Positions 1,705 to 16,198 of a stretch of 18,527 bases of DNA are shown piece by piece (the stretch's first letter is position 1; every line of letters begins with the position of its first letter). The stretch is from the NCBI GenBank assembly GCA_002401635.1, contig NVTQ01000034.1, forward strand, positions 1-18,527, read 5' to 3'. The translations under genes and the position numbers were made by a program. Source of the DNA: Pseudomonadota bacterium (lineage in GTDB: Bacteria > Pseudomonadota > Zetaproteobacteria > Mariprofundales > Mariprofundaceae). Below the pieces are notes generated by a model. That model ran no database searches. It was not told the DNA's origin and saw only the letters and a list, made by a program, of their open reading frames with translations.

Positions 1705-1902
1705 TTAGTATTTTCTTTCTAATGCTTGCTTCATTAGAAGCGCGTTATTGATAAAAATCTTTTCACTGTCATTTTTTCTAGGCTTTAAAGGATACTCTCC
1801 AGCACTTGCCCTTTGTGATACCGCACGAACAGACAGCCCTGTTCTTTTGGCAAACTCACGAATTGTTAGGTATGGGGTATCTAATTGGATAGTTACAGGC
1901 AT
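1705..1902 (-). CDS. Cox/Cro-like DNA-binding regulator, probable excisionase (copy A)
   Basis: 65 residues. The frame is open to 1968, but the ATG at 1902 is the likely start because GGAGGG lies nine bases upstream, while the earlier ATG has no site. Residues 10-36 (pattern YLTIREFAKRTGLS, then RAxSQRASAGEYP) resemble P2 Cox and other small winged-helix excisionase/regulator proteins: a helix-turn-helix followed by a Gly-x-x-Pro wing. It is the first gene of the long leftward operon and is divergent from the C-like repressor across an operator-like region. By analogy with P2 it should repress the lysogenic promoter and steer the integrase to excision. Family resemblance is from memory of P2 Cox; the dual role is inferred. 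Confidence 0.75.
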   Translation of the reverse strand: MPVTIQLDTPYLTIREFAKRTGLSVRAVSQRASAGEYPLKPRKNDSEKIFINNALLMKQALERKY

Positions 1903-1951
1903 TGGCTGGGTCCCTCCAAATATGTATACTAGAGCAGATAAGCGCATATGA

Positions 1952-1966
1952 GTCACAACAAGTGAC
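1952..1966. promoter_or_regulatory. Operator-like inverted repeat in the genetic switch (copy A)
   Basis: GTCAC-AACAA-GTGAC is a perfect 5-bp inverted repeat with a 5-bp centre, loosely extended by CATAT/ATAT outside. It lies between the divergent regulator genes, and its right arm overlaps the -35 hexamer of the repressor promoter. It is a good candidate binding site for the repressor or the Cox-like protein. The same site is at 14484-14498. Confidence 0.5.
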
Positions 1967-1991
1967 ATATACGAGCCATTAATGGCATAAT
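1962..1991 (+). promoter_or_regulatory. Sigma70-like promoter for repressor-integrase (copy A)
   Basis: GTGACA (1962-1967), an 18-bp spacer and CATAAT (1986-1991), each hexamer one base from consensus. Transcription would start near 1998, which leaves too little leader for the ATG at 2005 but suits the GTG at 2026. In P2, repressor and integrase share one promoter, and the same is likely here. I saw no equally good promoter for the leftward operon. Confidence 0.55.
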
Positions 1992-2025
1992 AAATTACAC
2001 GTACATGCTAGTCAAGGAAATTTTT

Positions 2026-2346
2026 GTGGGTATAGGTGAAAAAATAAGACACATACGTGTTAGTGAAAAACTAACCCAAATAGAATTTACCCAACTGACA
2101 GGTATTAAGCTTCGTACATTAAGGGGATATGAGAGCGAGTCACGCACAGAAATCAGCGTTAAAGAAATACTTAAAATAACCACCCATGAGCGCTTTGAAA
2201 AATATATATTTTTTTTAATGACTGACAAAGAAACAACTGCATTAAAAGATGAAGAATTCTTAGAGCTATTTGAAAACTTGGATAAGGAAAAGAGCAATCA
2301 AGCCTTGGATTTTATGAAATTTTTACTCGGCAAGTCTCACGATTAA
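2026..2346 (+). CDS. P2 C-type lysogeny repressor (copy A)
   Basis: 106 residues from the GTG at 2026, preferred over the ATG at 2005 because AAGGA lies seven bases upstream and the promoter start would be near 1998. Residues 2-38 are an XRE-type helix-turn-helix (GEKIRHIR, TQIEFTQLTG, then RTLRGYESE). The following part (FEKYIFFLMTDK) closely parallels the P2 C repressor, which has TKYTLWFMTN at the same place; P2 C is 99 residues. Like P2 C it lacks a peptidase domain, so SOS cleavage is not expected. It is divergent from the Cox-like gene and upstream of the integrase, the same order as in P2. Its last 24 bases overlap a convergent small gene. Confidence 0.8.
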   Translation: MGIGEKIRHIRVSEKLTQIEFTQLTGIKLRTLRGYESESRTEISVKEILKITTHERFEKYIFFLMTDKETTALKDEEFLELFENLDKEKSNQALDFMKFLLGKSHD

Positions 2347-2487
2347 AATTTCGAAGGTATTTTTTTTAGCCTTGCTTCTTTTTTTGTTTGATGGCTCTTT
2401 AAGCTTTAGGAGAAATACTGAAAATATTTTTTTTTGTTTGCTAGAAAGTTTTTTATAGTTATTTAAGGCAACCTTTGCGGACTCCAT
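2323..2487 (-). CDS. 54-residue basic protein antisense between repressor and integrase (copy A)
   Basis: Open frame of 54 codons starting ATG at 2487, preceded by AAGGAGGTGG eight bases upstream, one of the strongest ribosome sites in the window. The product starts MESAKVALNNYKKLSS, has a short hydrophobic patch (IFSVFLLKL) and a Lys/Arg-rich middle (NKKRSKAKK). It is convergent with the repressor, overlapping its last 24 bases, and divergent from the integrase. A perfect TTGACA (2533-2538, minus strand) lies upstream with a weak -10 (TAGTTT) at 17 bp. No family recognised. The transcript would be antisense to the repressor 3' end, so it may act as RNA as well as protein. Confidence 0.65.
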   Translation of the reverse strand: MESAKVALNNYKKLSSKQKKIFSVFLLKLKEPSNKKRSKAKKNTFEILIVRLAE

Positions 2488-2509
2488 GCTTCCACCTCCT
2501 TTTTTTTCA

Positions 2510-2538
2510 AAACTAAGCTAAAAAAAGGCAGGTGTCAA
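2510..2538 (-). promoter_or_regulatory. Possible promoter of the 54-codon gene (copy A)
   Basis: On the minus strand, perfect TTGACA (2533-2538), a 17-bp spacer, and a poor -10 TAGTTT (2510-2515). Start would be near 2503, just before the ribosome site at 2492-2501. The weak -10 makes it tentative. Confidence 0.35.
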
Positions 2539-2568
2539 TCATTAACTAACACTATAGTGGGCTTGAAC

Positions 2569-3666
2569 ATGAGCATAACAAAAACAAATCAAGGTTACCT
2601 AGTCAATACTCGCCCTAACGGTCACAGCGGCCCAAGATTTAGGCGTACATTTAAATCCCACGCTGAAGCAAAGGCATTTCAAAAGCACATAAACGCAACA
2701 CACAAAGAGACAACAGACTGGGAAAAACCTAAAACGGATAATCGTAAGCTATCTGATATTGCTAAAGATTGGCACACGTATCACGGCCATACTATAGGCT
2801 CTGGTGAAAAAAGACTCCAACAATTAGAAGCTACAGCAGAATCTTTAGGTGATCCTCTCGCTATAAAAATAGATCCAAAAGATTTTTTAGTGTACCGCAG
2901 AAAAAGACTTGAGGATGGTATAACTGAAAATCATCTAAACCACGAATTATCCTACCTAAAATCAGCTTTTAATGAACTTATACGAGTTGATGCTTGGAAC
3001 CTTCCTAATCCATATGGAAAAATTAAAAAACTAAAAATGGATGAAAGAGAACTGTATTTTTTAACATTGGAAGAAATCGAAAGTTTATTATTAGAAATCA
3101 ACCAAGGGAGAAATAAAGATACACTTGTTATTACCAAAATATGCCTGTCTATAGGCTGTAGATGGGGTGAAGCACAAAACCTTAGAGCAGAACAGATACA
3201 CCATGGAAAAATCCACCTTACAAAGACAAAAAACTCCAAAAATCGTAGCGTTCCAATATCTGACCAATTAGCTAACGAAATTTTTATAAACCGCCCCAGC
3301 AGAGGACAACTTTTTGTTAGTGCTTGGGAGTCGTTCGAAAATGCTATAAACCGCTCTGACATACAGCTACCACGAGGCCAAATGACACACGTTTTAAGGC
3401 ACACTTTCGCTAGTCACTTTGTAATGGATGGCGGAAATATACTTAAGCTAAAAGACATACTGGGCCACAAAACTATTCAAATGACCATGATTTACGCGAA
3501 GCTGTCACCTAGCCATCTAGCAACCGCAATCAAATGTAATCCATTAGCAATATTAGCCCGCCCCAGTAAAGACAAGAGTGAAACAGAGAACGAGGTAAAC
3601 TTAAGTAAGGCGGGCCAATTGCGGGCCAATTCCGACAATTTAGAAATTAATCAAAGTGCTCACTAA
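2569..3666 (+). CDS. int: P2-type tyrosine integrase (copy A)
   Basis: 365 residues from the ATG at 2569 (a GTG at 2557 would add four but has no ribosome site). The N-terminal arm-binding region (residues 8-40, NTRPNGHSGPRFRR) matches the style of the P2 integrase start. A core-binding SAM-like domain spans about 60-150 and the catalytic domain about 165-325. Catalytic residues visible: Arg198 (CRWGEA), Lys219 or Lys221 in the beta-hairpin, His274 and Arg277 (HVLRHTFASHF), His300 (LGH) and Tyr309 (MIYA). The pattern PRGQMTHVLRHTFASHF is very close to P2 Int. A 35-residue tail beyond the P2 end encodes two copies of the CGGGCCAATT repeat, so coding and arm-site DNA overlap. It catalyses integration and excision at the adjacent attP. 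Confidence 0.93.
   Translation: MSITKTNQGYLVNTRPNGHSGPRFRRTFKSHAEAKAFQKHINATHKETTDWEKPKTDNRKLSDIAKDWHTYHGHTIGSGEKRLQQLEATAESLGDPLAIKIDPKDFLVYRRKRLEDGITENHLNHELSYLKSAFNELIRVDAWNLPNPYGKIKKLKMDERELYFLTLEEIESLLLEINQGRNKDTLVITKICLSIGCRWGEAQNLRAEQIHHGKIHLTKTKNSKNRSVPISDQLANEIFINRPSRGQLFVSAWESFENAINRSDIQLPRGQMTHVLRHTFASHFVMDGGNILKLKDILGHKTIQMTMIYAKLSPSHLATAIKCNPLAILARPSKDKSETENEVNLSKAGQLRANSDNLEINQSAH
3611..3631 (+). repeat. Integrase arm-type direct repeats, P side (copy A)
   Basis: CGGGCCAATT at 3611-3620 and again at 3622-3631, an 11-bp period, inside the 3' end of int. The same 10-mer occurs three times in the same orientation on the other side of the attP core. Two groups flanking the core at one-turn spacing is what arm-type sites of tyrosine integrases look like. 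Confidence 0.6.
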
Positions 3667-3709
3667 CATCTAACCCACTCATAAGACATTGATTTATATC
3701 GAAAATAAA

Positions 3710-3766
3710 TGGTGCCCGGGAGCGGACTTGAACCGCTACGACCGTGAAGTCGGGAGATTTTAAGTC
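3710..3766 (-). other. attP: attP core: 3' part of tRNA-Leu(UAA) (copy A)
   Basis: Read on the minus strand this is the 3' 57 bases of a tRNA-Leu: anticodon loop CTTAAAA (anticodon UAA), 3' side of the anticodon stem TCTCC, variable arm CGAC/GTCG, T arm AGCGG-TTCAAGT-CCGCT, 3' acceptor strand CCCGGGC, and ACCA. The acceptor 5' half is absent, so this is not a working tRNA gene but an attachment core that would restore the host gene on integration. A GGTAGA at 3774-3779 sits at the D-arm distance seen in real tRNA-Leu, perhaps a relic. It lies 43 bases after int, the usual place. Confidence 0.8.
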
Positions 3767-3859
3767 GTCTAAATCTACCTTTTAAATCAATAACTTACAA
3801 TAAAATCAGTAACTTAAGCACTCATCTATACTTGTTTCCGCTTATGTATACTGACAAGT

Positions 3860-3890
3860 CGGGCCAATTTCGGGCCAATTTCGGGCCATA
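3860..3890 (+). repeat. Integrase arm-type direct repeats, P' side (copy A)
   Basis: CGGGCCAATT at 3860-3869 and 3871-3880 plus a partial CGGGCCATA at 3882-3890, 11-bp period, same orientation as the pair inside int. The spacing and flanking of the attP core support an arm-site role. Iterons for replication are the alternative, less likely because the replication gene is far away. Confidence 0.6.
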
Positions 3891-4017
3891 ACCATGAATA
3901 GAATCTATACAAGAAATATAATTTCATTATCAAATGATAAATCATAATACAGAGTATTTTGGCTAAAACTATACCAATAAGTTGATATGCCGTGTGTTTA
4001 TAACTATATTCCTGTAA

Positions 4018-4046
4018 TTGACCACATTGTAAATCAACTTTATTAT
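4018..4046 (+). promoter_or_regulatory. Sigma70-like promoter for the leader RNA and orphan gene (copy A)
   Basis: TTGACC (4018-4023), 17-bp spacer, TATTAT (4041-4046); each hexamer is one base off consensus and spacing is ideal. Start would be near 4053-4058. It is the best constitutive-looking promoter I see, and it lies outside the lytic operon, so it could be active in the lysogen. Confidence 0.6.
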
Positions 4047-4053
4047 AAGTGTG

Positions 4054-4265
4054 CTGCAATACGCAGTGAAGGGTCCTACGAAACTCTTCAGTTTGCTCCA
4101 CGAGAGCCACTATCAACCGCCAGCGGTTTTTATGCTCAAACTTTCCAGCTTTATGGTTGGGGGAAGTTCTGTCACTTTTTTATTTTAGAGTGATAGGACA
4201 GCTCGTGGGCTGCTTTCGTAGGCTTCTCCTGGCCACCCTTTTTGGTGGCTTCTGATTATTCTTAA
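4054..4265 (+). ncRNA. Structured leader RNA / candidate small RNA with terminator-like hairpin (copy A)
   Basis: About 210 bases between the promoter and the orphan gene hold nested pairings: an outer 9-bp helix CCTACGAAA (4075-4083) with TTTCGTAGG (4214-4222), a second 7-bp helix CCACGAG (4098-4104) with CTCGTGG (4202-4208), an inner hairpin AACCG-CCAG-CGGTT (4115-4128), and a bulged hairpin CTGTCACT (4169-4176) with AGTGA (4189-4193) and ACAG (4198-4201). It ends with GCCACC-CTTTTT-GGTGGC (4232-4249) followed by a T-rich stretch, which resembles an intrinsic terminator. This may be a regulatory leader, a separate small RNA, or a single-strand origin or packaging signal. I know no matching family. 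The open frames crossing it lack ribosome sites. Confidence 0.5.
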
Positions 4266-4285
4266 TAATAGAAGGAAGCTATAGT

Positions 4286-4627
4286 ATGCCTGATTCTGAT
4301 ATATTCTCATTTCAAAGTTTTGTAGAACGCTTCAGCGTGGAAAACCTGAGATTTTCTTCAATGGATGATGCAGTTGGAAATACTGTATCTATTGAACATC
4401 TATTAACTATTTTAAAAACACACCGGCCAACCCAAAAAACGAGTAGAGAGGAAATAGTAGGAACATACGTTTATTACACTGGCCTATGGGAAAAGAACCT
4501 AACTACAAATAATTTAAATACCCAGATTCAAAAAATCGTTGACCGTGGTGGAAAATTTGAACGTCAATCAGCACTAATGTTAGCAATAGAACAAAGGGAC
4601 GAGTTCAAGAAAGACCTCAAGGTCTGA
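4286..4627 (+). CDS. Orphan 113-residue protein next to attP, candidate lysogenic-conversion gene (copy A)
   Basis: 113 residues, ATG at 4286 with AAGGAAG seven bases upstream. The protein is soluble-looking, mostly helical and charged, with no signal, span or catalytic motif I can name; a middle stretch reads YVYYTGLWEKN and the end is EQRDEFKKDLKV. It has its own promoter, long structured leader and terminator, and is the only plus-strand gene on this side of attP. In an integrated prophage it would lie at the end beside the host DNA, where P2-like phages carry tin and old. An exclusion, defence or host-modulating role is therefore plausible but only from position and autonomy. Identical in copy B. 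Confidence 0.75.
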   Translation: MPDSDIFSFQSFVERFSVENLRFSSMDDAVGNTVSIEHLLTILKTHRPTQKTSREEIVGTYVYYTGLWEKNLTTNNLNTQIQKIVDRGGKFERQSALMLAIEQRDEFKKDLKV

Positions 4628-4632
4628 GAAAG

Positions 4633-4653
4633 TGGCCCTTTCGGGCCATTTTT
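4633..4653 (+). terminator. Intrinsic terminator, convergent gene end (copy A)
   Basis: TGGCCC-TTTC-GGGCCA (4633-4648), a 6-bp GC-rich stem, followed by TTTTT. It lies six bases after the orphan gene stop and abuts the stop of the convergent spike gene. On the minus strand the hairpin has a weak ACTTTCT tract, so it may also end the lytic operon. Confidence 0.75.
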
Positions 4654-5623
4654 ACTTTGGCAATGTTTGATAAATATTAGTGCCATAAGCGCTATAGAGA
4701 TCACCTGAAAAATCAAACAATACCCCCCAAGGGTTTGAACTTGACTCATCGCTGATGGGTATACCGCAAGGCTTAAAATTAATGCCATCGTCACTGTACA
4801 TGATCGCTTGAGCCTCAATAAAAACGTATAACAACTCATTGAATACAAATAATGAATTTATTTGTGTGTTTGAGCTTGGCAAGTTGTACCACAACCTAGG
4901 CGTATGATCGATTACACCGCTGCCGTCCAACGCCATTGAAAACAAACTTGTTGAAGAACCCACATACAAACGCCCTAAAAAAACTGCCTGGGATTTAAGC
5001 TCGCCAGGATCGACCGGGCCGAAACTATCAACACGAATCCAATTTGAGGCTCCATCTTCACTCACGAAAATTACAGGACCGGCTTCATTATCTGTCAAAA
5101 AAACAAAGGTGTTTTGATCAACATAAAAACGGATTGCTTGTAATTCGGCTATTGTCAATTCATCATTTGTAGGGAAAAAAACTTGCCCCCACGTATCACC
5201 GTTATTTGTAGATCGATAAAAAAAATTATCATTCACCGCCGCCACAATAACGCCGTTAAAATTAGTAGCCAAGGACCTAGGGCTTACTTGGGGTATACGC
5301 TCAGTCCACACATCGCCGTTACTGTCGCTGGTGTACAGACCTCGATTTGAGGCACCAGGGTTAGCACAACCAAGCACCAATCTATCGTTAACACCTAAAA
5401 GTGACAATGGGTTAAATGGTGCCGGTATCTCTTCGATAATTTTATTAAATTCGTAGCGTAGTAATCGAGGAGCGGAGTTTGAACCATTCCCGATAAACCA
5501 AAAATCATTCAGAATCGCGGAACATGTAAGCTCCTCCGTATCTGAAAAATTTAAATGAATACGTATAAAATTTAAATCACTAATAGCATTATTAGATTCG
5601 GCTCTAAAATTATTGATGGGCAT
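4652..5623 (-). CDS. Asp-box beta-propeller protein, probable receptor-binding spike (copy A)
   Basis: 323 residues, ATG at 5623 with AGGTG five bases upstream. Repeated Asp-box-like motifs (Ser-x-Asp/Asn-x-Gly-x-x-Trp) lie near residues 98-106 (TSDSNGDVW), 138-145 (STNNGDTW), 188-195 and 277-283 (SDDGINF), each after a hydrophobic strand. This is the BNR/sialidase-type beta-propeller pattern. No catalytic sialidase Arg triad is evident, so binding rather than hydrolysis is likelier. It is the last gene of the virion operon, where host-recognition proteins are often found. Residue 229 is Ser here and Pro in copy B, the only amino-acid difference found between the copies. The spike role is inference. 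Confidence 0.7.
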   Translation of the reverse strand: MPINNFRAESNNAISDLNFIRIHLNFSDTEELTCSAILNDFWFIGNGSNSAPRLLRYEFNKIIEEIPAPFNPLSLLGVNDRLVLGCANPGASNRGLYTSDSNGDVWTERIPQVSPRSLATNFNGVIVAAVNDNFFYRSTNNGDTWGQVFFPTNDELTIAELQAIRFYVDQNTFVFLTDNEAGPVIFVSEDGASNWIRVDSFGPVDPGELKSQAVFLGRLYVGSSTSLFSMALDGSGVIDHTPRLWYNLPSSNTQINSLFVFNELLYVFIEAQAIMYSDDGINFKPCGIPISDESSSNPWGVLFDFSGDLYSAYGTNIYQTLPK

Positions 5624-5630
5624 TTAACAC

Positions 5631-6083
5631 CTACACTAGTTTATACGCATTGTGAAAAATAGATGGGTCGAGTGTCTTCCCATTTTCGATTTTTGCCATC
5701 GCCACAAGTAATGATATCTTATCTTGGGGTGTCACTATTTTGCTAAAACTATTTTTATCAATTATTTTTGACACGCTATTAATATAAGTCTTTGTATCAT
5801 TGTTATCTTCTGGCGGTGCCCATCTGTAGATAATGTCTTTTATCGTGTCTATGCCCTTTTTCCGGTACGATTCTAAAATTTTAAAGGCCGCTCTTACGCC
5901 AAGCTCCGGTGAACGAAAAATGACAAAACCTTTGTCGTCTACCCCTATTTGTCCTTGCCATCGATTTGCCGGTGAATAACGTATGTTAAGTGGATTATTA
6001 TTTCTAATTCCCCTTGGAATTTTATTTTTTGAAAAATAAACAATGACAATAGCAGCTAATAATAGTAATGCTTTATCACGCAC
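5631..6083 (-). CDS. Membrane-anchored lysozyme-like muralytic virion protein
   Basis: 150 residues from the GTG at 6083, chosen because GGAGG lies six bases upstream; the frame is open to a GTG at 6122. Residues 4-18 form a hydrophobic N-terminal anchor. Residues 24-100 carry the pattern RGIRNNNPLNIR, RWQGQ, FVIFRSPELGVRAA, then YRWAPPEDNNDTKTYI, which is shared by phage proteins annotated as virion lysozyme-like or transglycosylase, including those of tailless membrane phages. Glu133 (AKIENG) is conserved-looking near the end. The probable role is local peptidoglycan opening at entry. Its start overlaps the previous stop by eight bases. Copy B is cut at the contig junction. Confidence 0.75.
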   Translation of the reverse strand: MRDKALLLLAAIVIVYFSKNKIPRGIRNNNPLNIRYSPANRWQGQIGVDDKGFVIFRSPELGVRAAFKILESYRKKGIDTIKDIIYRWAPPEDNNDTKTYINSVSKIIDKNSFSKIVTPQDKISLLVAMAKIENGKTLDPSIFHNAYKLV

Positions 6084-6504
6084 CAACACCCTCCAGTACA
6101 GATATTCTCGACCCAACGACACTTAACGCATTGATTGCAGTGTTAGGTACTATTCCATTTTCAAATGATATTTGAAAACCAGCAGGTAATTCGATTGAGT
6201 TTTCACCGTTAATTTTTGGCGTTACATTAAAGCCTAAAAAAATAGTTTCAGTGCCAATATTTTGTATCAACAAATAATTTCGAGCTTTACTTGCACCAAC
6301 CACAGAACTAGCGACAGTTGAAATATCTGCTGTCGATGAAGTGAACTTATGATAACCAAAACTGATTTTGTTTTTACGCTTTTTTTTTGTCGCTTTGTAC
6401 GCATCGTTGCTATCTACAGATATGCCGGTTGAAAAACCTACACCATCAGCAATATTACTGTTATCGTTTGGTATGGAGGATTGCTCTATTTTATTTACTC
6501 TCAT
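6076..6504 (-). CDS. Beta-sandwich virion protein, vertex or spike-base candidate
   Basis: 142 residues, ATG at 6504; ribosome site weak (GTGAG). The first ~55 residues are polar with a basic patch (TKKKRKNK). The C-terminal ~70 residues alternate short strands: RNYLLIQNIGTETIFLGF, SIELPAGFQISF, then IVPNTAINALSV and ISVLEG. That C-terminal pattern is familiar from small phage head-decoration and spike-stem domains, in which a strand pair is followed by a 'valid natural-language' Leu-x-Pro-Gly turn and an AINALS strand. It lies between the jelly-roll candidates and the muralytic enzyme. Assignment to the vertex is by context. Confidence 0.6.
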   Translation of the reverse strand: MRVNKIEQSSIPNDNSNIADGVGFSTGISVDSNDAYKATKKKRKNKISFGYHKFTSSTADISTVASSVVGASKARNYLLIQNIGTETIFLGFNVTPKINGENSIELPAGFQISFENGIVPNTAINALSVVGSRISVLEGVGA

Positions 6505-6515
6505 AACAAACTCAC

Positions 6516-6917
6516 TTAAGAAAATATCTTATGACCAATCAAACTAAGTGTTATGTTTGTGTACTCGTCCAATGTTGAGAAGTTGTTAAATTTTATATTA
6601 ATTGATGACCTCGCCTTAAAAAGTCGAGGGATAGGCAGAACAAAAGGTAATGCCCCTGTACCGGCTAGGCTACTAAGTGGTACAGCTTGATCTTGTAAAT
6701 TTCTACCTGATCCACTATCCAGAATGGAGATACCTATTAGCGGCACTATCTTATCGTCGTTAGTTGGCGTTGCAGTTCCGAGTGTTGCATAGTACGCCAT
6801 TTTTTGGACAATAAAATTAGCATCCGCTTCGATGTTAATTACTTCTGTTTGCGTCGCCCCGGCAGCTAGTGTGCTCACAACTGCATTATAAATATAATAG
6901 TCTTTAGTCACGCTCAT
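6516..6917 (-). CDS. Second jelly-roll-like capsid protein candidate
   Basis: 133 residues from the ATG at 6917, preferred because GGTGG lies five bases upstream; a GTG at 6926 would add three. No membrane span. The sequence is beta-rich throughout: a strand with TEVINIEADANFIVQKMAYY, a loop with short polar stretches, then FVLPIPRLFKARSSINIKF and a final strand NITLSLIGHKIF. The 'PRLF-x-A-x-S-x-I' and closing 'IGxKxF' patterns recur in capsid proteins of small marine phages as I remember them. It follows the larger capsid candidate by 47 bases, and the pair could be two single jelly-roll coat proteins. Major versus minor status cannot be told from sequence. Confidence 0.6.
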   Translation of the reverse strand: MSVTKDYYIYNAVVSTLAAGATQTEVINIEADANFIVQKMAYYATLGTATPTNDDKIVPLIGISILDSGSGRNLQDQAVPLSSLAGTGALPFVLPIPRLFKARSSINIKFNNFSTLDEYTNITLSLIGHKIFS

Positions 6918-6944
6918 AACGTCCACCCAAATATTGATAAGTAA

Positions 6945-6966
6945 GGGAGTTTCCCCCCTTTTTTTT
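6945..6966. other. Stable hairpin after the main capsid gene
   Basis: On the minus strand, immediately after the capsid gene stop and an A8 run, GGGGG-GAAA-CTCCC can form a 5-bp stem (one G-U pair) with a GNRA tetraloop. It could protect the capsid mRNA 3' end or modulate read-through into the 133-residue gene. On the plus strand the same DNA is a stem followed by T8, a terminator shape that would stop antisense transcripts. Confidence 0.45.
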
Positions 6967-7573
6967 ACTGAGAGTTACGGAAAAGGTAACCATTTAACGT
7001 TACGCCAATACGTGCTGCAATTGTGCGTGCTGCAATATCACGCAGTTCGATTGAAAAATTTTGATTACTTTCGAGCGCTAAATCTTTTATTACAAACTCT
7101 CGACCAGAGGCCACGCTATAAACATTATTAGTACCGGCTAATGCGGTTGATGTTTCTAACGCAAGTCGATTCACCGGAGGAAATTTCAATAAATTTCCTT
7201 GTGTTATAAAATCCTTTGAGCCAATTTTTAGTATTAAATGACCACCTTTGTAAAAGTTATATACATCATTTGTAAAAGTTGAAATTGCCGATGTTGCCAA
7301 ATCTGCCGAAGGTAAATATTCCACTTGTACGCCGGTAATCTGAAAACGTTGCCCTTTGGGTATTTGACCAGACAATTCCATATTTGTATCACTTTGGGAT
7401 TTGCCGCTTGTCCCAACCGGATCAATAAAAAACCGCTGAGTTGCTGTTACGCTCGCATTGATCGCTACAGTTTGGTAGTCATATAATGGTTGCCAGATTG
7501 CTTCTACTGAGCCAGGAATATTCACTCGTGTACCTGACATTTTTGGAACTGGTAAACCTCTGCGCCTAGACAT
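6965..7573 (-). CDS. Major capsid protein candidate (single jelly-roll type)
   Basis: 202 residues, ATG at 7573 with AAAGGA seven bases upstream. After a short basic start (MSRRRGLPVPK) the rest is beta-strand-like. Recognisable stretches are IPKGQRFQITGVQVEYLP, GGHLILKIGSKDFIT, LLKFPPVNRLA, SGREFVIKDLAL, NFSIELR and RIGVTLNGYLFR. This order (hydrophobic strand, 'G-x-L-x-L-x-IG', 'L-x-x-FPP', then a closing 'R-x-G-V-x-L-x-G-x-L-x-R') is one I associate with coat proteins of small marine tailless phages. Length suits a single jelly roll rather than the ~300-residue double barrel of FLiP or PM2. It is central in the virion block. Assignment rests on pattern and context only. Confidence 0.65.
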   Translation of the reverse strand: MSRRRGLPVPKMSGTRVNIPGSVEAIWQPLYDYQTVAINASVTATQRFFIDPVGTSGKSQSDTNMELSGQIPKGQRFQITGVQVEYLPSADLATSAISTFTNDVYNFYKGGHLILKIGSKDFITQGNLLKFPPVNRLALETSTALAGTNNVYSVASGREFVIKDLALESNQNFSIELRDIAARTIAARIGVTLNGYLFRNSQ

Positions 7574-7636
7574 AATAATTTCCTTTTTTTTATCGGGTAA
7601 TAAATGCGCCCATTAAAGAGCATTGTTTTTTAAAAA

Positions 7637-8149
7637 TTAATCGAACTCATCATCAAAGATATCATCGTCAATACCTAAGAGATCATCGCCTAAGAGGTCG
7701 TCACCTAAATCTAGGTCATCGTCAAACCCCATCAAATCACCGTACCCGTCCATATCGTCATAATCATAAGCACTAAGGCCCAGTGACGGGCCAAGAGCAT
7801 TTTTGCCAGCGCTATACAGTGCTACGGTCATTGCTCCTTGTGCAACCTGTTGGCCTAACGATTTTTTACCAAACTTTGAAACCAGCATACCTAGCCCAAT
7901 GCCCACTAACCCCCTCGCAACCGGAGCCATTGAGCCAGTTTTTAAATTTTCCGGTATGGGTAGCTTGGCCATTGCGACATCAACTGCAAGGGCACCGGCA
8001 GCACCAACGCCTCCAGCCATTGCCGTCTTACCAATAGCAGCTTTATCTACGGGATTGCGCCGGTAGCGTTTCGTGACTTTCGTAACACTTGATAAGCGTT
8101 TCTTTTTTTTAGTGCGCTTTTTAGGATTGACTAACATGAGTTGAGCCAT
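7637..8149 (-). CDS. Basic-to-acidic Gly/Ala-rich minor virion or membrane protein
   Basis: 170 residues from the ATG at 8149, chosen because GGAG lies six bases upstream; the ATG at 8161 has no site. Three clear zones: a Lys/Arg-rich N-terminus (residues 9-32, NPKKRTKKKKR), a Gly/Ala-rich hydrophobic middle with two possible membrane or amphipathic helices (about 42-62 and 78-92), and an extremely acidic tail (129-170) with repeated GDDLL units. The start MAQLMLVNPKKR is of a type I recall from small marine phage proteins. It may link capsid, membrane and genome, or act as an assembly factor, but no specific function can be given. It ends 63 bases before the capsid gene. Confidence 0.65.
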   Translation of the reverse strand: MAQLMLVNPKKRTKKKKRLSSVTKVTKRYRRNPVDKAAIGKTAMAGGVGAAGALAVDVAMAKLPIPENLKTGSMAPVARGLVGIGLGMLVSKFGKKSLGQQVAQGAMTVALYSAGKNALGPSLGLSAYDYDDMDGYGDLMGFDDDLDLGDDLLGDDLLGIDDDIFDDEFD

Positions 8150-8170
8150 AACGTTCTCCATTGAAATTAT

Positions 8171-8814: not shown

Positions 8815-8816
8815 TC

Positions 8817-9745: not shown

Positions 9746-9750
9746 AACGG

Positions 9751-10641: not shown

Positions 10642-10647
10642 AATCTC

Positions 10648-11142
10648 TTAATTGTGTTGGGTTAACATAGATTTTATATTTTTTGGTCCACGCCCCATTT
10701 TCCATTTTTCGGTTGCTTCTAAGGTTATCCACTGATTTGATATGTTGACTTGGGGGAATACATGAGTAAATTTTTGGGGCGTGAAACCAATTGCTAAAAA
10801 ACGTGTTTTATGGCCAATAGCTTCGAGTAAGGAGGCAATCAGAATTGAATGGTCATCACAATCACCCTGGCCAATCCGCAGTGTTTGAACGGGTGTTTGC
10901 AGTGTTTCGACGCCTCTAATATCTTTCACGTATCTAATTCTATCTCGAACGAATGCGTGTATTTTTCTCGCCTCAGAAAACCACTTTTTTTGCGGCAAAC
11001 TAGAAACTAATTTCAGAGCCAATTCGCGTATCACTGGTGACTTTTTAAAAGCTTTTGTAATGTGTGACATTGCTCGCAAAGTATCCCGTATTCCAGCCTC
11101 ACCGTTTGCTACTGTCAACAGTTTATATGTCGGTTTCATCAC
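10648..11142 (-). CDS. Transglutaminase-fold cysteine protease/acyltransferase-like protein
   Basis: 164 residues, ATG at 11142 (a second ATG follows at once), overlapping the previous gene by 20 bases. The core has the transglutaminase-like order: GQGDCDDHS with Cys95 at the start of a helix, THVFPQV with His127, and WITLEAT with Glu142 in the usual acid position (Asp in most members). Residues 56-75 (EARKIHAFVRDRIRYVKD) are the helix that typically precedes the core. Such domains cleave or crosslink peptides. In a virion operon the likely jobs are maturation or crosslinking of capsid proteins, or acting on the host wall. No signal peptide. Confidence 0.8.
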   Translation of the reverse strand: MMKPTYKLLTVANGEAGIRDTLRAMSHITKAFKKSPVIRELALKLVSSLPQKKWFSEARKIHAFVRDRIRYVKDIRGVETLQTPVQTLRIGQGDCDDHSILIASLLEAIGHKTRFLAIGFTPQKFTHVFPQVNISNQWITLEATEKWKMGRGPKNIKSMLTQHN

Positions 11143-12163
11143 TATCTTTTGTGTTAGTTAATGGCGTTATATCAGTGTTAGCATCATCTTTCAATGGCTC
11201 TTCATTGTGCATATTTAACAAATTTTTAACGTGTATGATTAATGTATCAAACCACTGCATATGAGCGGATACACCACGATTAAAATTTATTAATTTTTTT
11301 AAGACGTCATCACTTAGCAACATATTTATCAATATATCATTATTTATTTGATCAATGATTAGTGCTGCATATACTTCTGGGTCCGCATTTTTTTTGGCTG
11401 CGTTGATCAATATATTTATACCATTTTGCATTTTCATGTTAGGTTTCTTTTTTATATTGTTGTCTTGTATTTCAGGTTGAACATTAGGCTGTTGAATTGC
11501 CGCTGTAATTAAGGGAGTAGCTTTTTCTAACAGTTCTGAAAACCCGGATTCTTTTTCTGCTTGAACTCCCCCAACATTGATACCTAAAGACTTCAACACG
11601 TCCATCGATTGCGTAAGCTGCTCAAGACCATTGCCAGATTGACCGTCGCTGCTAAAAAGGGCTTTATACTGGACCATTCTCGCCAGAAAATCGCCTTCAC
11701 TCGGAGGGCTTTCCACTCTATGTCTCTCTGACATAAGATGCATTATTTGAGTATTTTGCTTTTGTATTGCATCAAGTACGGTTTGCATTAATGCAGTATT
11801 TCCAGTGCTGGCTTCGCTCAGTTGACAGGCAATTGATATAAGTTTATTGGCTTTAATTTTACCGTTCGAGTACAACAATAATCGATAGTCACCACCACCG
11901 TACGATATTTTTAAATGCTCTTGTAACTGACCATAATCGTATTTATCCGCTGGGTACCGCGCAACAAACTCCATTGCGCTTTTACCATCTGTTAACTGTC
12001 GAGACACATTAACAAACGCTTCTGGATCTTCTTTTAATGCATTTAAAAAAGCATCTGTTTTTATATCTGCATCCGTTGATGAGTCCGCCGGCTCATTTTG
12101 AAAAGTATCATAAACATCTGTGATATTGTCATCAGATAACAGTAGTTCGGCTTTTTTTCCCAT
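11123..12163 (-). CDS. Large helical phage protein, internal or assembly protein candidate
   Basis: 346 residues, ATG at 12163 with AAGG six bases upstream. The only strong landmark is at about 65-111: ARYPADKYDYGQLQEHL, YGGGDYRLLLY, then GKIKANKLISI, a beta-type module I recall in uncharacterised proteins of small phages. Around it lie long charged helical regions (about 115-170 and 180-215), a low-complexity stretch, and a hydrophobic-helix-rich C-terminal third (250-325) without a clear membrane span. No Walker A motif is present, so it is not a packaging ATPase. It is the first gene after the replication gene. Scaffold or portal-like vertex function would fit its place but is speculation. 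Confidence 0.65.
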   Translation of the reverse strand: MGKKAELLLSDDNITDVYDTFQNEPADSSTDADIKTDAFLNALKEDPEAFVNVSRQLTDGKSAMEFVARYPADKYDYGQLQEHLKISYGGGDYRLLLYSNGKIKANKLISIACQLSEASTGNTALMQTVLDAIQKQNTQIMHLMSERHRVESPPSEGDFLARMVQYKALFSSDGQSGNGLEQLTQSMDVLKSLGINVGGVQAEKESGFSELLEKATPLITAAIQQPNVQPEIQDNNIKKKPNMKMQNGINILINAAKKNADPEVYAALIIDQINNDILINMLLSDDVLKKLINFNRGVSAHMQWFDTLIIHVKNLLNMHNEEPLKDDANTDITPLTNTKDSDETDI

Positions 12164-12202
12164 TTTTGACCTTCTTAGTTAACTACTTAGATTAAGTAGG
12201 TT

Positions 12203-13612
12203 TTAGTAGTTATATGAAGCGTATGCTTCATAAGCGCTGAGTGAATCACTAACCTGATTACATTTTTTTTCAATGTAAGCTGATAAATCACTCTCCTCCC
12301 AGGCCGCACGAATTTTTTTTCGCCAATAAATCCATTTTGTACTTGCTGGCGCATCGGCACCCCAGCCAACCGTTTCCGCTCGACTAAAAAATTTCATAAA
12401 GGTATGCCGGTCCTTGATAATAAGATGATATTTATAGGCACGTATTGGTATTGCATTTAATTTTTTTCTAACTTTCGATAGCTTAATCCCTATCTTCATT
12501 TTTATTATTTTGATTGTTGCGGCATCTAAATTCTTATTTTTCCTAAGCTTGTCTCTTGCTTCATTTAGCTTTTTTCGTTGATAGAAGTCTTGTGAATATT
12601 TATGTTGAATTGAATCGTAAGTTTCACGAATCAACCGCCCCATTACACCTAATTCATGGACTGACAGCGTAACCCATTCGGGGGCACGAGCAGAGCAGCT
12701 AATTGCATACCGGTTTCCAATTACTTTTCCTTGATCGGCTTGACCATGCGCCTTGGTGATATATCCCGCTGCTTTTGCCATATACGCTCCGGCTGCATCA
12801 GCGTTTAAAATTTTTTCTAAATGAAAATATCCATTCCCCCATATCGATTCAATTCGTCTTGACCATGCTTTAAAGTGTTTAGGTTCTACGCGCCAATCTA
12901 TGAGCATATGTATATGTGGGTTATCTTCACCATTTTGATTTTGCGGAATCTCAACAACCCAACAGTAGCGCAATTTGTCAGGCCGATTACCGGATGTGTG
13001 CCCTGAAAGCTTCTCAACACGCCCCCCCACTTTATACTCCCACCCACGTTGGTACATTTTAACCATGCCGTCCATTGTGCGAGTGGCTTCTCTTTGAACG
13101 GTCGTTTCATTTTTTGCAATTTTTTCTCGTACCTCTTCGGTAAATGTACCGGTCGCAAAGGTCTTGTAACCCTGATATTTCATAGACATATACTCACAGC
13201 TTTCAGCAATTTTACGGGCACCACGGTCTGACAGCATTAAACTTGCTCTTTCACCGTCATTTAACGGCGGAGAGATTGACATTTCAGTGTTAACACGAGT
13301 ACGTATCCGGTATTGATCACACCAGTCTCTGTACTCGATCACAGTACACGAGCCAGGAGCATCAACCGGTTTTGATATTGCTGACATTTCAGTTTTTATT
13401 TTTTGGTGCTCTCGCCGGCTATTAGCGCCCAACTCACTAAACGGGCCTTCAGCAACACACGCCAAAGGAACCGGTAAATTTGAAAAATATTTACGACCAC
13501 GAAAGGCTTGTTTTTGTGCTTCTACAAGCAAGATATCGTATGTCGGACTTTTGGTGCCCTTGACTAGACTATTACAACCGGCTTCGCCGGTCGCCAAACA
13601 ATTATTAAGCAT
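12203..13612 (-). CDS. Rolling-circle replication initiator (HUH endonuclease), complete copy
   Basis: 469 residues, ATG at 13612 with GGAG eight bases upstream, overlapping the previous stop by eight bases. Motif 1 is about residues 150-158 (TFATGTFTE), the metal-binding HUH motif is NPHIHMLIDW (His233, His235), and the catalytic region is YMAKAAGYITKA with Tyr277, Lys280, Tyr284 and Lys287. Two tyrosines, each with a following lysine, fit the phiX174 gpA/phage replication class, which nicks, stays covalently bound and terminates with the second tyrosine. The C-terminal ~130 residues are basic and helical without helicase motifs, so host helicase would be needed. It implies rolling-circle replication through single-stranded DNA. 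Confidence 0.9.
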   Translation of the reverse strand: MLNNCLATGEAGCNSLVKGTKSPTYDILLVEAQKQAFRGRKYFSNLPVPLACVAEGPFSELGANSRREHQKIKTEMSAISKPVDAPGSCTVIEYRDWCDQYRIRTRVNTEMSISPPLNDGERASLMLSDRGARKIAESCEYMSMKYQGYKTFATGTFTEEVREKIAKNETTVQREATRTMDGMVKMYQRGWEYKVGGRVEKLSGHTSGNRPDKLRYCWVVEIPQNQNGEDNPHIHMLIDWRVEPKHFKAWSRRIESIWGNGYFHLEKILNADAAGAYMAKAAGYITKAHGQADQGKVIGNRYAISCSARAPEWVTLSVHELGVMGRLIRETYDSIQHKYSQDFYQRKKLNEARDKLRKNKNLDAATIKIIKMKIGIKLSKVRKKLNAIPIRAYKYHLIIKDRHTFMKFFSRAETVGWGADAPASTKWIYWRKKIRAAWEESDLSAYIEKKCNQVSDSLSAYEAYASYNY

Positions 13613-13949
13613 CGTTAAACTCCAAGTGATTTAAGCCCACAGAAACTAATGACGCTATATAGCTATTAATTTCACCTATTTTTTCTGTGTCGCAATCACC
13701 GGAAAGAATAGCGTTTCTTTTTATTATATTTTTTTTTAAATCAATTATGTGCGCTTGGGATAGCTCGATAAGTAGCGTTGTATTTTTTAGTTTATTATGC
13801 ATATTATTATTCCGTTTATCTGATAAAAATTCACAGTGACTTATCAATGGTATTAGGATTAAAAAAAAACTTAAAAATACTAAACCATCAAAATTATTCA
13901 CTGTTTTTAATTTCAACCGTATAATTATTTTTAATATCAAGCGCTTCAT
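13605..13949 (-). CDS. Small single-span membrane protein, unknown function (copy B)
   Basis: Identical to the protein at 1073-1417: basic N-terminus, one hydrophobic span, polar tail. Start has GGTGGG upstream, lies 56 bases inside the preceding gene, and the stop overlaps the complete replication gene. Confidence 0.55.
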   Translation of the reverse strand: MKRLILKIIIRLKLKTVNNFDGLVFLSFFLILIPLISHCEFLSDKRNNNMHNKLKNTTLLIELSQAHIIDLKKNIIKRNAILSGDCDTEKIGEINSYIASLVSVGLNHLEFNDA

Positions 13950-14220
13950 TGGCTAAACCCACCAGGCAGATTGCAATATTTTTACAGAAATTTGCATCCA
14001 TATCAGACCATGAACGCTTGACATCAATTACGTTTAACTTTGATTTTCTTTCCAGATAGTAAATTGCAGAATTATAATATTTTGACCAATTACAACAGAG
14101 GTACGATTCACCAGCGCTAGAAATTTCCATTAGTGATTTTTTCCCACCGAAACTTACAATAAATTTACACGCTGACTCATATTCCAAATATTTCAGTAAG
14201 TCTTTTTTATTTTTATTCAC
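13894..14220 (-). CDS. Small soluble protein, unknown function (copy B)
   Basis: Identical to the protein at 1362-1688. GTG at 14220 follows GGGGG by five bases; TTG at 14232 is an alternative. Early gene between the Cox-like regulator and the replication block. Confidence 0.6.
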   Translation of the reverse strand: MNKNKKDLLKYLEYESACKFIVSFGGKKSLMEISSAGESYLCCNWSKYYNSAIYYLERKSKLNVIDVKRSWSDMDANFCKNIAICLVGLANEALDIKNNYTVEIKNSE

Positions 14221-14236
14221 ACAAGCCCCCAAGAAA

Positions 14237-14434
14237 TTAGTATTTTCTTTCTAATGCTTGCTTCATTAGAAGCGCGTTATTGATAAAAATCTTTTCACTG
14301 TCATTTTTTCTAGGCTTTAAAGGATACTCTCCAGCACTTGCCCTTTGTGATACCGCACGAACAGACAGCCCTGTTCTTTTGGCAAACTCACGAATTGTTA
14401 GGTATGGGGTATCTAATTGGATAGTTACAGGCAT
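14237..14434 (-). CDS. Cox/Cro-like DNA-binding regulator (copy B)
   Basis: Identical to 1705-1902. This copy heads the complete leftward operon that runs through the intact replication and virion genes down to 4652, so it is the one whose operon is fully visible. Start ATG at 14434 follows GGAGGG by nine bases. Confidence 0.75.
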   Translation of the reverse strand: MPVTIQLDTPYLTIREFAKRTGLSVRAVSQRASAGEYPLKPRKNDSEKIFINNALLMKQALERKY

Positions 14435-14483
14435 TGGCTGGGTCCCTCCAAATATGTATACTAGAGCAGATAAGCGCATATGA

Positions 14484-14498
14484 GTCACAACAAGTGAC
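14484..14498. promoter_or_regulatory. Operator-like inverted repeat in the genetic switch (copy B)
   Basis: GTCAC-AACAA-GTGAC, same as 1952-1966, overlapping the -35 of the repressor promoter. Confidence 0.5.
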
Positions 14499-14523
14499 AT
14501 ATACGAGCCATTAATGGCATAAT
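14494..14523 (+). promoter_or_regulatory. Sigma70-like promoter for repressor-integrase (copy B)
   Basis: GTGACA, 18-bp spacer, CATAAT; same as 1962-1991. Confidence 0.55.
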
Positions 14524-14557
14524 AAATTACACGTACATGCTAGTCAAGGAAATTTTT

Positions 14558-14878
14558 GTGGGTATAGGTGAAAAAATAAGACACATACGTGTTAGTGAAA
14601 AACTAACCCAAATAGAATTTACCCAACTGACAGGTATTAAGCTTCGTACATTAAGGGGATATGAGAGCGAGTCACGCACAGAAATCAGCGTTAAAGAAAT
14701 ACTTAAAATAACCACCCATGAGCGCTTTGAAAAATATATATTTTTTTTAATGACTGACAAAGAAACAACTGCATTAAAAGATGAAGAATTCTTAGAGCTA
14801 TTTGAAAACTTGGATAAGGAAAAGAGCAATCAAGCCTTGGATTTTATGAAATTTTTACTCGGCAAGTCTCACGATTAA
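14558..14878 (+). CDS. P2 C-type lysogeny repressor (copy B)
   Basis: Identical to 2026-2346. GTG start after AAGGA. XRE helix-turn-helix in the first 40 residues and a P2 C-like middle. Divergent from the Cox-like gene at 14237-14434. Confidence 0.8.
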   Translation: MGIGEKIRHIRVSEKLTQIEFTQLTGIKLRTLRGYESESRTEISVKEILKITTHERFEKYIFFLMTDKETTALKDEEFLELFENLDKEKSNQALDFMKFLLGKSHD

Positions 14879-15019
14879 AATTTCGAAGGTATTTTTTTTA
14901 GCCTTGCTTCTTTTTTTGTTTGATGGCTCTTTAAGCTTTAGGAGAAATACTGAAAATATTTTTTTTTGTTTGCTAGAAAGTTTTTTATAGTTATTTAAGG
15001 CAACCTTTGCGGACTCCAT
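14855..15019 (-). CDS. 54-residue basic protein antisense between repressor and integrase (copy B)
   Basis: Identical frame and AAGGAGGTGG ribosome site as at 2323-2487. Overlaps the last 24 bases of the repressor gene on the other strand. Confidence 0.65.
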   Translation of the reverse strand: MESAKVALNNYKKLSSKQKKIFSVFLLKLKEPSNKKRSKAKKNTFEILIVRLAE

Positions 15020-15100
15020 GCTTCCACCTCCTTTTTTTTCAAAACTAAGCTAAAAAAAGGCAGGTGTCAATCATTAACTAACACTATAGTGGGCTTGAAC

Positions 15101-16198
15101 ATGAGCATAACAAAAACAAATCAAGGTTACCTAGTCAATACTCGCCCTAACGGTCACAGCGGCCCAAGATTTAGGCGTACATTTAAATCCCACGCTGAAG
15201 CAAAGGCATTTCAAAAGCACATAAACGCAACACACAAAGAGACAACAGACTGGGAAAAACCTAAAACGGATAATCGTAAGCTATCTGATATTGCTAAAGA
15301 TTGGCACACGTATCACGGCCATACTATAGGCTCTGGTGAAAAAAGACTCCAACAATTAGAAGCTACAGCAGAATCTTTAGGTGATCCTCTCGCTATAAAA
15401 ATAGATCCAAAAGATTTTTTAGTGTACCGCAGAAAAAGACTTGAGGATGGTATAACTGAAAATCATCTAAACCACGAATTATCCTACCTAAAATCAGCTT
15501 TTAATGAACTTATACGAGTTGATGCTTGGAACCTTCCTAATCCATATGGAAAAATTAAAAAACTAAAAATGGATGAAAGAGAACTGTATTTTTTAACATT
15601 GGAAGAAATCGAAAGTTTATTATTAGAAATCAACCAAGGGAGAAATAAAGATACACTTGTTATTACCAAAATATGCCTGTCTATAGGCTGTAGATGGGGT
15701 GAAGCACAAAACCTTAGAGCAGAACAGATACACCATGGAAAAATCCACCTTACAAAGACAAAAAACTCCAAAAATCGTAGCGTTCCAATATCTGACCAAT
15801 TAGCTAACGAAATTTTTATAAACCGCCCCAGCAGAGGACAACTTTTTGTTAGTGCTTGGGAGTCGTTCGAAAATGCTATAAACCGCTCTGACATACAGCT
15901 ACCACGAGGCCAAATGACACACGTTTTAAGGCACACTTTCGCTAGTCACTTTGTAATGGATGGCGGAAATATACTTAAGCTAAAAGACATACTGGGCCAC
16001 AAAACTATTCAAATGACCATGATTTACGCGAAGCTGTCACCTAGCCATCTAGCAACCGCAATCAAATGTAATCCATTAGCAATATTAGCCCGCCCCAGTA
16101 AAGACAAGAGTGAAACAGAGAACGAGGTAAACTTAAGTAAGGCGGGCCAATTGCGGGCCAATTCCGACAATTTAGAAATTAATCAAAGTGCTCACTAA
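15101..16198 (+). CDS. int: P2-type tyrosine integrase (copy B)
   Basis: Identical to 2569-3666: catalytic Arg198, His274, Arg277, His300 and Tyr309 all present. The start ATG is at 15101. Its 3' end carries two arm-type repeats at 16143-16163. Confidence 0.93.
   Translation: MSITKTNQGYLVNTRPNGHSGPRFRRTFKSHAEAKAFQKHINATHKETTDWEKPKTDNRKLSDIAKDWHTYHGHTIGSGEKRLQQLEATAESLGDPLAIKIDPKDFLVYRRKRLEDGITENHLNHELSYLKSAFNELIRVDAWNLPNPYGKIKKLKMDERELYFLTLEEIESLLLEINQGRNKDTLVITKICLSIGCRWGEAQNLRAEQIHHGKIHLTKTKNSKNRSVPISDQLANEIFINRPSRGQLFVSAWESFENAINRSDIQLPRGQMTHVLRHTFASHFVMDGGNILKLKDILGHKTIQMTMIYAKLSPSHLATAIKCNPLAILARPSKDKSETENEVNLSKAGQLRANSDNLEINQSAH
16143..16163 (+). repeat. Integrase arm-type direct repeats, P side (copy B)
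   Basis: CGGGCCAATT at 16143-16152 and 16154-16163, inside the 3' end of int, as in copy A. Confidence 0.6.

What the first reader, a model, noticed from the sequence alone, without database searches (positions are those of the whole stretch)
1705..16198. P2-style lysogeny module on a small tailless HUH phage
The sequence shows a P2 C-like repressor, a divergent Cox-like protein and a P2-type integrase in P2 order, joined to an HUH replication gene and a virion block with no tail, terminase or portal genes. P2 is a tailed myovirus. Tailless small phages with this control set are, to my knowledge, little described. It suggests modular exchange of a whole switch between unrelated virus realms.
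Basis: partly seen in the sequence, partly recalled or inferred. Interest (0 to 1): 0.8.

Follow-up and report, generated by a model that had tools for sequence, protein, structure and literature searches.

The report
Tailless temperate phage with swapped shell
This looks like a small tailless bacterial virus whose on/off switch resembles that of the tailed phage P2, whose DNA-copying gene resembles that of PM2-like tailless phages, and whose shell genes resemble those of a little-known salt-loving phage, hinting that viruses can exchange their whole shell.

Summary
Contig C85 is a 12,532-bp unit present about 1.47 times. It carries a P2-type C repressor, a divergent Cox, a P2-type integrase and an attP-like site with paired arm repeats around a tRNA-Leu-like 3' half. 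It also has an HUH Rep and no convincing tail, terminase or portal gene. The interpretation needs changing. The P2-type switch is not this phage's oddity: the same int/C|cox/Rep...lysozyme order occurs with a PM2 coat in contig L141, and an inovirus record carries Cox plus P2-type Int. What is unusual is the virion block. No PM2 coat or ATPase was found. [quoted passage not shown] The coat candidate is predicted jelly-roll-like. Five related 15.7-18.8-kb contigs carry this block with other or unrecognised replication genes, two with family B DNA polymerase. Best reading: a temperate tailless phage with a PM2-type backbone and an SSIP-1-like shell. It rests on one contig; host and virion are untested.

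The parts
1..12532 (.). one repeat unit; the contig continues with 12533-18403 = copy of 1-5871 (2 mismatches)
1705..1968 (-). Cox-like excisionase/repressor (second copy 14237-14500)
   Evidence: phrog_575 E 6e-15; 42% to F108 Cox over 50 aa
1962..2015 (.). cox-C gap with two facing sigma-70-like promoter matches
   Evidence: total count (11) not above shuffles (9.1, sd 3.0)
2005..2346 (+). P2 C-type repressor (second copy 14537-14878)
2557..3666 (+). P2-type tyrosine integrase (second copy 15089-16198)
   Evidence: PF24624, PF00589
3611..3631 (+). two arm-type repeats CGGGCCAATT (11-bp spacing) inside the 3' end of int (second copy 16143-16163)
   Evidence: binding not tested
3705..3766 (-). 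attP core candidate: tRNA-Leu-like 3' half (second copy 16237-16298)
3860..3891 (+). two exact and one degenerate arm-type repeats (second copy 16392-16423)
4286..4627 (+). ORF of unknown function
   Evidence: no family above cut-off
4652..5623 (-). possible beta-propeller (DUF6242, Sortilin, BNR hits below cut-off); receptor binding is a guess
5631..6122 (-). lysozyme/transglycosylase-like protein homologous to those of NO16-type phages
   Evidence: phrog_873 E 7e-39; 40% to its NO16 counterpart
6076..6504 (-). 142-aa protein at the edge of the virion block
   Evidence: weak match to L018 at the same place (E 0.07 and 0.044)
6516..6926 (-). p136, possible second jelly-roll capsid protein
   Evidence: homologs in L016, L017, L018, L032, L033; SSIP-1 gp47 E 7e-4; fold
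6965..7573 (-). 202-aa predicted major capsid protein, jelly-roll-like model
   Evidence: 138 homologs; model pLDDT 87; folds
7637..8161 (-). p174, basic N-terminus
   Evidence: conserved in 5 of 5 small relatives
8171..8425 (-). p84
   Evidence: conserved in 5 of 5 small relatives
8473..8814 (-). p113, strongly basic (26% K+R)
   Evidence: weak match to L032, E 0.002
8817..9299 (-). p160, hydrophobic segment
   Evidence: homologs in L016, L032, L033
9296..9745 (-). p149, hydrophobic C-terminus
   Evidence: homologs in L016, L032, L033
9751..10641 (-). p296, basic (24% K+R), hydrophobic C-terminus
   Evidence: no homolog at E < 0.05
10648..11142 (-). transglutaminase-like protein (TG), homolog of SSIP-1 structural protein gp34
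   Evidence: PF01841 E 6e-10; gp34 E 9e-12, 5e-33 by profile
11123..12163 (-). p346, conserved first protein of the virion block
12203..13612 (-). HUH rolling-circle replication initiator, NO16/PM2-type
   Evidence: PF23343; Vibrio phages; motifs
13605..14232 (-). two small ORFs between Rep and cox (p114, p112; first copies 1073-1700)
18404..18527 (.). contig end that departs from the repeat unit; probable assembly chimera

Best explanation
A 12.5-kb temperate tailless phage. The P2-type set works as in P2/186: C holds lysogeny, Cox opposes C and drives excision, and Int recombines attP with the 3' half of a host tRNA-Leu gene. The HUH Rep copies the circular genome by rolling circle. The virion is icosahedral, built from a 202-aa single-jelly-roll coat protein plus a second small beta protein, probably with an internal membrane, as in SSIP-1. 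The genome is a PM2-type backbone - int, C, cox, Rep, lysozyme - whose double-jelly-roll/ATPase virion block is replaced by an SSIP-1-like block. Shown: homologies, gene order, arm-repeat/tRNA anatomy, predicted fold. Inferred: function of each part, circularity, membrane, lysogeny, direction of the swap, packaging without a phage ATPase.
Against: No virion, lysogen or host has been seen. The virion block is read only once in the contig: the repeated stretch covers 1-5871, so the Rep-p346 and lysozyme-p142 junctions have no second copy. The gp46 link is weak (E 3; P 0.017 with gp45 next at 0.027). p136's fold matches tie with non-viral beta proteins. No Foldseek PDB match reached E 0.001 for either model. 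No C operator repeats were found; promoter matches are not above chance. One further arm-like site with 1 mismatch lies at 4642, outside attP. No attB: 0 of 397 other genomes have the 26-nt tRNA end with at most 1 mismatch; tRNA-Leu genes of the MAG's genus are only 74-78% similar. None of the five small relatives matches this Int. Of 40 loci with both Int and Rep only L082/L141 (one contig) and L162 show a PM2 coat match, so 'PM2-type backbone' rests on few contigs.
Confidence: 0.7

Rival explanations
1. Assembly chimera: a PM2-type phage with a P2 switch and an SSIP-1-like phage were joined by the assembler.
For: The last 124 bases of the contig leave the unit, so a faulty join probably exists in this contig; the virion block and both its junctions are read once only; the full combination is seen in one contig; the contig may be misbinned.
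Against: The virion block is flanked by Rep on one side and lysozyme on the other, the place the PM2 virion block has in L141, and both flanks belong to the same repeated backbone. The lysozyme and p142 genes overlap by 47 bp at one border and Rep and p346 are 39 bp apart at the other. GC is 37-39% in switch, lysozyme and virion parts, Rep 42%, the two small ORFs 30%. Homologs of coat and Rep share an exact longest-contig length and source in 2 cases (about 0.40 expected), Rep and Int in 2 cases (0.25 expected), coat and Int in none besides the window (0.40 expected) (from the lists): a hint only.
Confidence: 0.12
2. A satellite or phage-plasmid that borrows part of its virion from a helper phage.
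For: No packaging ATPase found (pattern scan; Pfam); small genome.
Against: It encodes a coat candidate, a second small beta protein, hydrophobic and basic proteins and a lysozyme; five contigs of 15.7-18.8 kb keep the same block.
Confidence: 0.1
3. An ordinary PM2/NO16-type phage whose double-jelly-roll coat has diverged beyond recognition.
For: Rep and lysozyme are NO16-type; PM2-coat contigs carry the same switch.
Against: No P2_N/P2_C or ATPase match in 20 proteins; virion profiles match SSIP-1-type contigs and no ORF of L141, L061 or L162; the coat candidate is a 202-aa mainly beta protein.
Confidence: 0.05
4. A filamentous (inovirus-like) phage with HUH Rep, Cox and P2-type Int, as Yong-M4-251.
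For: That inovirus record has Cox, a replication initiator and a 42% identical Int.
Against: No Zot family match in the window's 20 proteins; in the all-protein BLAST no window protein but Int matched that record at E 0.01 (Cox pairwise E 0.004); coat candidate is mainly beta.
Confidence: 0.03

Closest known systems
[quoted passage not shown]
   Same: TG = structural gp34; p136 ~ gp47; coat ~ gp46 (weak); gp46-gp47 adjacency
   Different: 43.8 kb; integrase only distantly similar (36 aa); ATPase gp40 annotated as structural; no Rep, Cox or C match
PM2-coat contig IMGVR_UViG_2524614873_000001 (L141/L082)
   Same: int, C | cox, two small ORFs, Rep..., lysozyme in the same order
   Different: PM2 coat and ATPase instead of the SSIP-1-like block (PHROGs labels the ATPase 'terminase large subunit')
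Vibrio phage NO16 (Asemoviridae)
   Same: homologous Rep and lysozyme; temperate, non-tailed
   Different: double-jelly-roll coat, ATPase; dif-like sites, XerCD suggested
Bacteriophages P2 and 186 (Peduoviridae)
   Same: Int; C (P2 only; 186 CI gave no match); Cox/Apl (186 Apl weak, P2 Cox no pairwise match); gene order; attP arms around a core, in 186 a truncated tRNA
   Different: tailed phages; A-type replication gene
Synechococcus phage Yong-M4-251 (inovirus record)
   Same: Cox, P2-type Int, replication initiator on 11.3 kb
   Different: annotated inovirus coat; no virion-block protein matched it
Flavobacterium phage PhiCjT23 (lipid-containing temperate ssDNA phage)
   Same: small temperate icosahedral phage with a replication initiation protein (passages of PMC9719478)
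   Different: dif/XerCD integration; PM2/FLiP-related coat; sequences not compared here

Membership tests
P2-type lysogeny module | C repressor of the P2 group | tested here: met
   phrog_147 E 4e-17; SEN5 C 40%, P2 C 35%
P2-type lysogeny module | divergent Cox-like protein | tested here: met
   phrog_575 E 6e-15; F108 Cox 42%; P2's own Cox gave no pairwise match
P2-type lysogeny module | integrase with P2-type N-terminal domain, next to C | tested here: met
   PF24624 E 3e-32; order as
P2-type lysogeny module | attP with arm sites on both sides of the core, one set in the int 3' end | tested here: met
   as a sequence pattern only
P2-type lysogeny module | C operators and face-to-face promoters | tested here: inconclusive
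   no repeats found; facing promoter matches but not above chance
Peduoviridae (as a virus) | tail, portal and terminase genes | tested here: not met
   weak hits named in the observation check
Asemoviridae / PM2-type Vinavirales | double-jelly-roll coat P2 | tested here: not met
   no P2_N/P2_C match in 20 proteins
Asemoviridae / PM2-type Vinavirales | FtsK-like packaging ATPase | tested here: not met
   pattern scan found a Walker A-like string only in the lysozyme ORF
Asemoviridae / PM2-type Vinavirales | homologous HUH Rep and lysozyme | tested here: met
SSIP-1-like virion | transglutaminase-like structural protein gp34 | tested here: met
SSIP-1-like virion | coat proteins gp46 and gp47 side by side | tested here: inconclusive
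   gp47 E 7e-4; gp46 E 3 by HMMER, first of 56 by hhalign at P 0.017; that gp46/gp47 are the coats is inferred
SSIP-1-like virion | ATPase gp40 | tested here: not met
   no homolog among ORFs of the window unit and the held relatives
SSIP-1-like virion | internal membrane, icosahedral particle | not testable with these tools
   hydrophobic segments only
Single-jelly-roll viruses (sphaerolipovirus-like, Portogloboviridae) | coat fold | tested here: inconclusive
Inoviridae | Zot-type ATPase | tested here: not met
   no Zot match in 20 proteins

The most novel reading that the evidence does not exclude
A whole virion module was exchanged between unrelated tailless lineages: a PM2-type genome (P2-type switch, HUH Rep, lysozyme) wears an SSIP-1-like single-jelly-roll shell. 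The same shell block travels with circularly read genomes and with a genome that has terminal inverted repeats and family B DNA polymerase, apparently without its own packaging ATPase, so these contigs form an undescribed family-level group of small relatives of the isolate SSIP-1.
Probability: 0.53. Interest if true: 0.8.

Novelty: new variant of a known kind. Interest (0 to 1): 0.62.

Why it matters
Virus realms rest largely on shell proteins, on the view that the shell is the stable core while replication genes come and go (general knowledge). Here backbone and switch stay in place while the shell differs, which would be a direct test case. It also gives SSIP-1, whose coat fold a 2018 review marks 'single jelly roll?' and whose family it leaves open (PMC6260650, table passage), a family of 138 coat homologs that can be modelled and tested.

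Tried and rejected
Single-sequence scans of viral contigs with coat and Rep found nothing; alignments were needed. Coat versus phages and plasmids: no match. Genome scan with the coat alignment: none confirmed; with p136: two MAG contigs. Rfam: none. Coat in 99 other genomes (relatives and same phylum): 0. NCBIfam and PADLOC added nothing for the small ORFs. Tandem lysogeny as the cause of the repeat: not excluded; two intact attP-like copies and contig ends inside genes fit a circular or concatemeric genome at least as well. Host: the MAG assignment is doubtful. The tRNA end with up to 3 mismatches occurs in 10 of 60 other genomes, all outside the MAG's order; named Int and Rep homologs (a minority of the rows) include Bacterioplanoides, Hahella, Gilvimarinus, Cellvibrionaceae and Marinimicrobium, but also Burkholderia, Methylovorus and Magnetococcales. 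Host left open. BFVD's top match I1ZBH9 (211 aa, E 4e-5, TM 0.48) has the length of SSIP-1 gp46, but the tool gave no name. p174's best SSIP-1 match was gp41 (P 0.007), p84's gp55 (P 0.08); not used. That 18404-18527 reads like an aldo-keto reductase fragment is recalled motif knowledge, from no call. Fold families named in rows that I call jelly rolls are so called from recall.

Papers: ten searches, seen as listings of titles and abstract beginnings; none of the listed entries described this combination. Seen further: PMC9966536 abstract and first part of Results; PMC12324425 abstract (a different element); passages of PMC6356626, PMC9239159, PMC5894146, PMC6260650, PMC12451628, PMC9719478. 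The original SSIP-1 paper is not held. Odds: on rechecking, the virion block proved to be read only once, so I lowered the best explanation from 0.72 to 0.70 and the novel case from 0.55 to 0.53, and raised the chimera from 0.10 to 0.12.


Full report
WHAT IS THERE. The window is contig C85 of a 2.1-Mb, 128-contig draft genome estimated 79% complete. Positions 1-5871 recur at 12533-18403 with two mismatches, so the contig holds a 12,532-bp unit about 1.47 times; the last 124 bases leave the unit and match nothing else in the draft genome. The repeated part holds the end of Rep, the small ORFs, cox, C, int, attP, the propeller and part of the lysozyme gene; the virion block is read once. This fits a circular or concatemeric genome; a tandem array is not excluded.

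THE SWITCH. Cox, C and Int each match P2-group proteins by profile and by pairwise search. Cox: phrog_575 E 6e-15, 20 phage records, F108 Cox 42% over 50 aa, 186 Apl 32% over 37 aa, P2 Cox no pairwise match. C: phrog_147 E 4e-17, 78 phage records, SEN5 C 40% and P2 C 35%; among solved structures P2 C (E 0.0024) comes second to PezA (E 0.0005). Int: PF24624 and PF00589, 356 phage records, P2 38%, 186 40%. In a tree of 67 rows (window, 60 of the 120 listed homologs, 6 references) window Int sits in a 10-row clade (99/96), apart from P2/SEN5 and from 186/F108/Yong-M4-251. The module is P2-type, not a recent copy of P2's own.

THE att SITE. CGGGCCAATT occurs exactly four times in the unit, both strands scanned, at 3611, 3622, 3860 and 3871; a copy with one mismatch lies at 4642 and a degenerate fifth attP copy at 3882. 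The first two lie inside the 3' end of int. Between the sets, 3705-3766 resembles the 3' half of tRNA-Leu: of 73 other genomes of the MAG's family 6 match, at 8 loci (74-85% identity), and all 8 are tRNA-Leu genes, 7 with anticodon TAA and 1 with CAG. The records of P2 and 186 annotate the same plan: P2 has its P' arm overlapping int, 186 has 3+2 predicted arm sites around a truncated tRNA-Ile. No attB was found: 0 of 397 other genomes of the phylum carry the tRNA end with at most one mismatch. With up to three mismatches 10 of 60 do, none in the MAG's own order. The MAG assignment is therefore doubtful.

REPLICATION AND LYSIS. Rep has PF23343 and matches 27 phage records, all Vibrio, 20 of them listed, 11 of these NO16 or NO16-like; the four opened are filed under Varidnaviria. 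Over 123 rows (window, three Vibrio phages, the 119 listed homologs other than the window's own) H233, H235, Y277 and Y284 are invariant. The 163-aa lysozyme-like protein is 40% identical to its NO16 counterpart. For NO16 the authors suggest XerCD integration at dif-like sites (abstract, PMC9966536).

THE VIRION BLOCK. Of ten proteins between 6076 and 11142, and p346, only the transglutaminase-like protein has a Pfam or phrog match at E <= 0.001. The 202-aa protein has 138 homologs at E <= 0.01 among 423 candidates, none of the 120 listed with a Pfam domain, and no match in 50,697 phage or 72,556 plasmid records. Alignment scans found relatives: L018 (= L007), L017 (= L008) and L016 in viral contigs and MAG contigs L032 (Desulfobacterales) and L033 (Zixiibacteriota). 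TG, p84, p174, the coat and p136 match in all five, in one order; p346 matches four of five by BLAST and all five by profile. Replication genes differ or are unrecognised: L018 and L032 encode family B DNA polymerase (PF03175); contig L018 has 123-bp terminal inverted repeats, L016 and L017 have 91- and 97-bp direct terminal repeats; L017 has a resolvase; L016's and L033's replication genes were not recognised (one L016 candidate scanned, none of L033's). None of the five matches the window's Int. A Walker A pattern scan found no convincing ATPase in the window or the five; the scan is crude.

LINK TO SSIP-1. Among the phage records TG matches only SSIP-1 gp34, annotated structural. Iterated profiles give gp34 E 5e-33, gp47 E 7e-4 for p136, and gp46 E 3 for the coat. 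Against 56 SSIP-1 proteins (the long gp43 left out) hhalign ranks gp47 first for p136 (P 6e-4) and gp46 first for the coat (P 0.017, next gp45 0.027). gp46 and gp47 are neighbours, as coat and p136 are. A review calls SSIP-1 membrane-containing with PRD1-adenovirus-type architecture and two coat types (PMC6356626, passages); another lists T=49, 'single jelly roll?', family open (PMC6260650, table passage).

THE CONTROL THAT CHANGES THE STORY. Scanning viral contigs with the Int and Rep alignments kept 80 loci each (both lists capped). In 40 of the 160 loci both a P2-type Int and the Rep are found; two contigs are counted twice (L082/L141, L134/L197). Of the 40, only L082/L141 and L162 show a PM2 coat match; the others show none of the tested PM2 coat, ATPase or window virion markers in the stretch held. 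L141 reads: int, C, cox, two small ORFs, Rep (46% identical), ATPase, PM2 coat (P2_N and P2_C), lysozyme. L061 has C, cox, int, ATPase, PM2 coat and lysozyme with a P2-A-type Rep. L162 has Int, Cox, Rep, ATPase and PM2 coat. None of eight window virion profiles matches an ORF of these three. So a P2-type switch with this Rep on a tailless phage is an existing kind, and the window differs from L141 chiefly in its virion block. Plasticity of the replication module in PM2-like viruses and ATPase-less double-jelly-roll viruses (Odin group) are in print (PMC5894146, passages).

VERDICT. Observation confirmed; interpretation partly right. I file the switch as a P2-type module, the Rep and lysozyme as PM2/NO16-type, and the virion block as SSIP-1-like. 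I do not file the phage as a member of Peduoviridae, Asemoviridae or Inoviridae, since defining features failed. The full combination rests on one contig; function, host and particle are untested.

Noticed in passing
L022, L023, L024, L025, L026, L027, L028 and L009 (35-66-kb viral contigs): Large contigs carry distant coat homologs by iterated profile, seven of these eight also a transglutaminase-like homolog, some also p346, p84 or p136 homologs: possible larger cousins nearer SSIP-1 in size.
   Followed up: partly
window 18404-18527: Contig end foreign to the repeat unit; reads like part of an aldo-keto reductase (recalled motif).
   Followed up: partly
L062-L081: Loci, mostly 6-13 kb, with P2-type Int and often P2-type C but no PM2 coat match; two with a Zot match. 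Other small phages may use the P2-type switch.
   Followed up: no
L043 (PQ189286): PM2-coat Vibrio element annotated with integrase, excisionase and LexA-like repressor around a homologous Rep; its integrase and repressor gave no match to the window's, its excisionase only a 28-aa one to Cox: switch exchange within this backbone.
   Followed up: partly
window 4286-4627 and 13605-14232: Three small ORFs without a family; no PADLOC match.
   Followed up: partly
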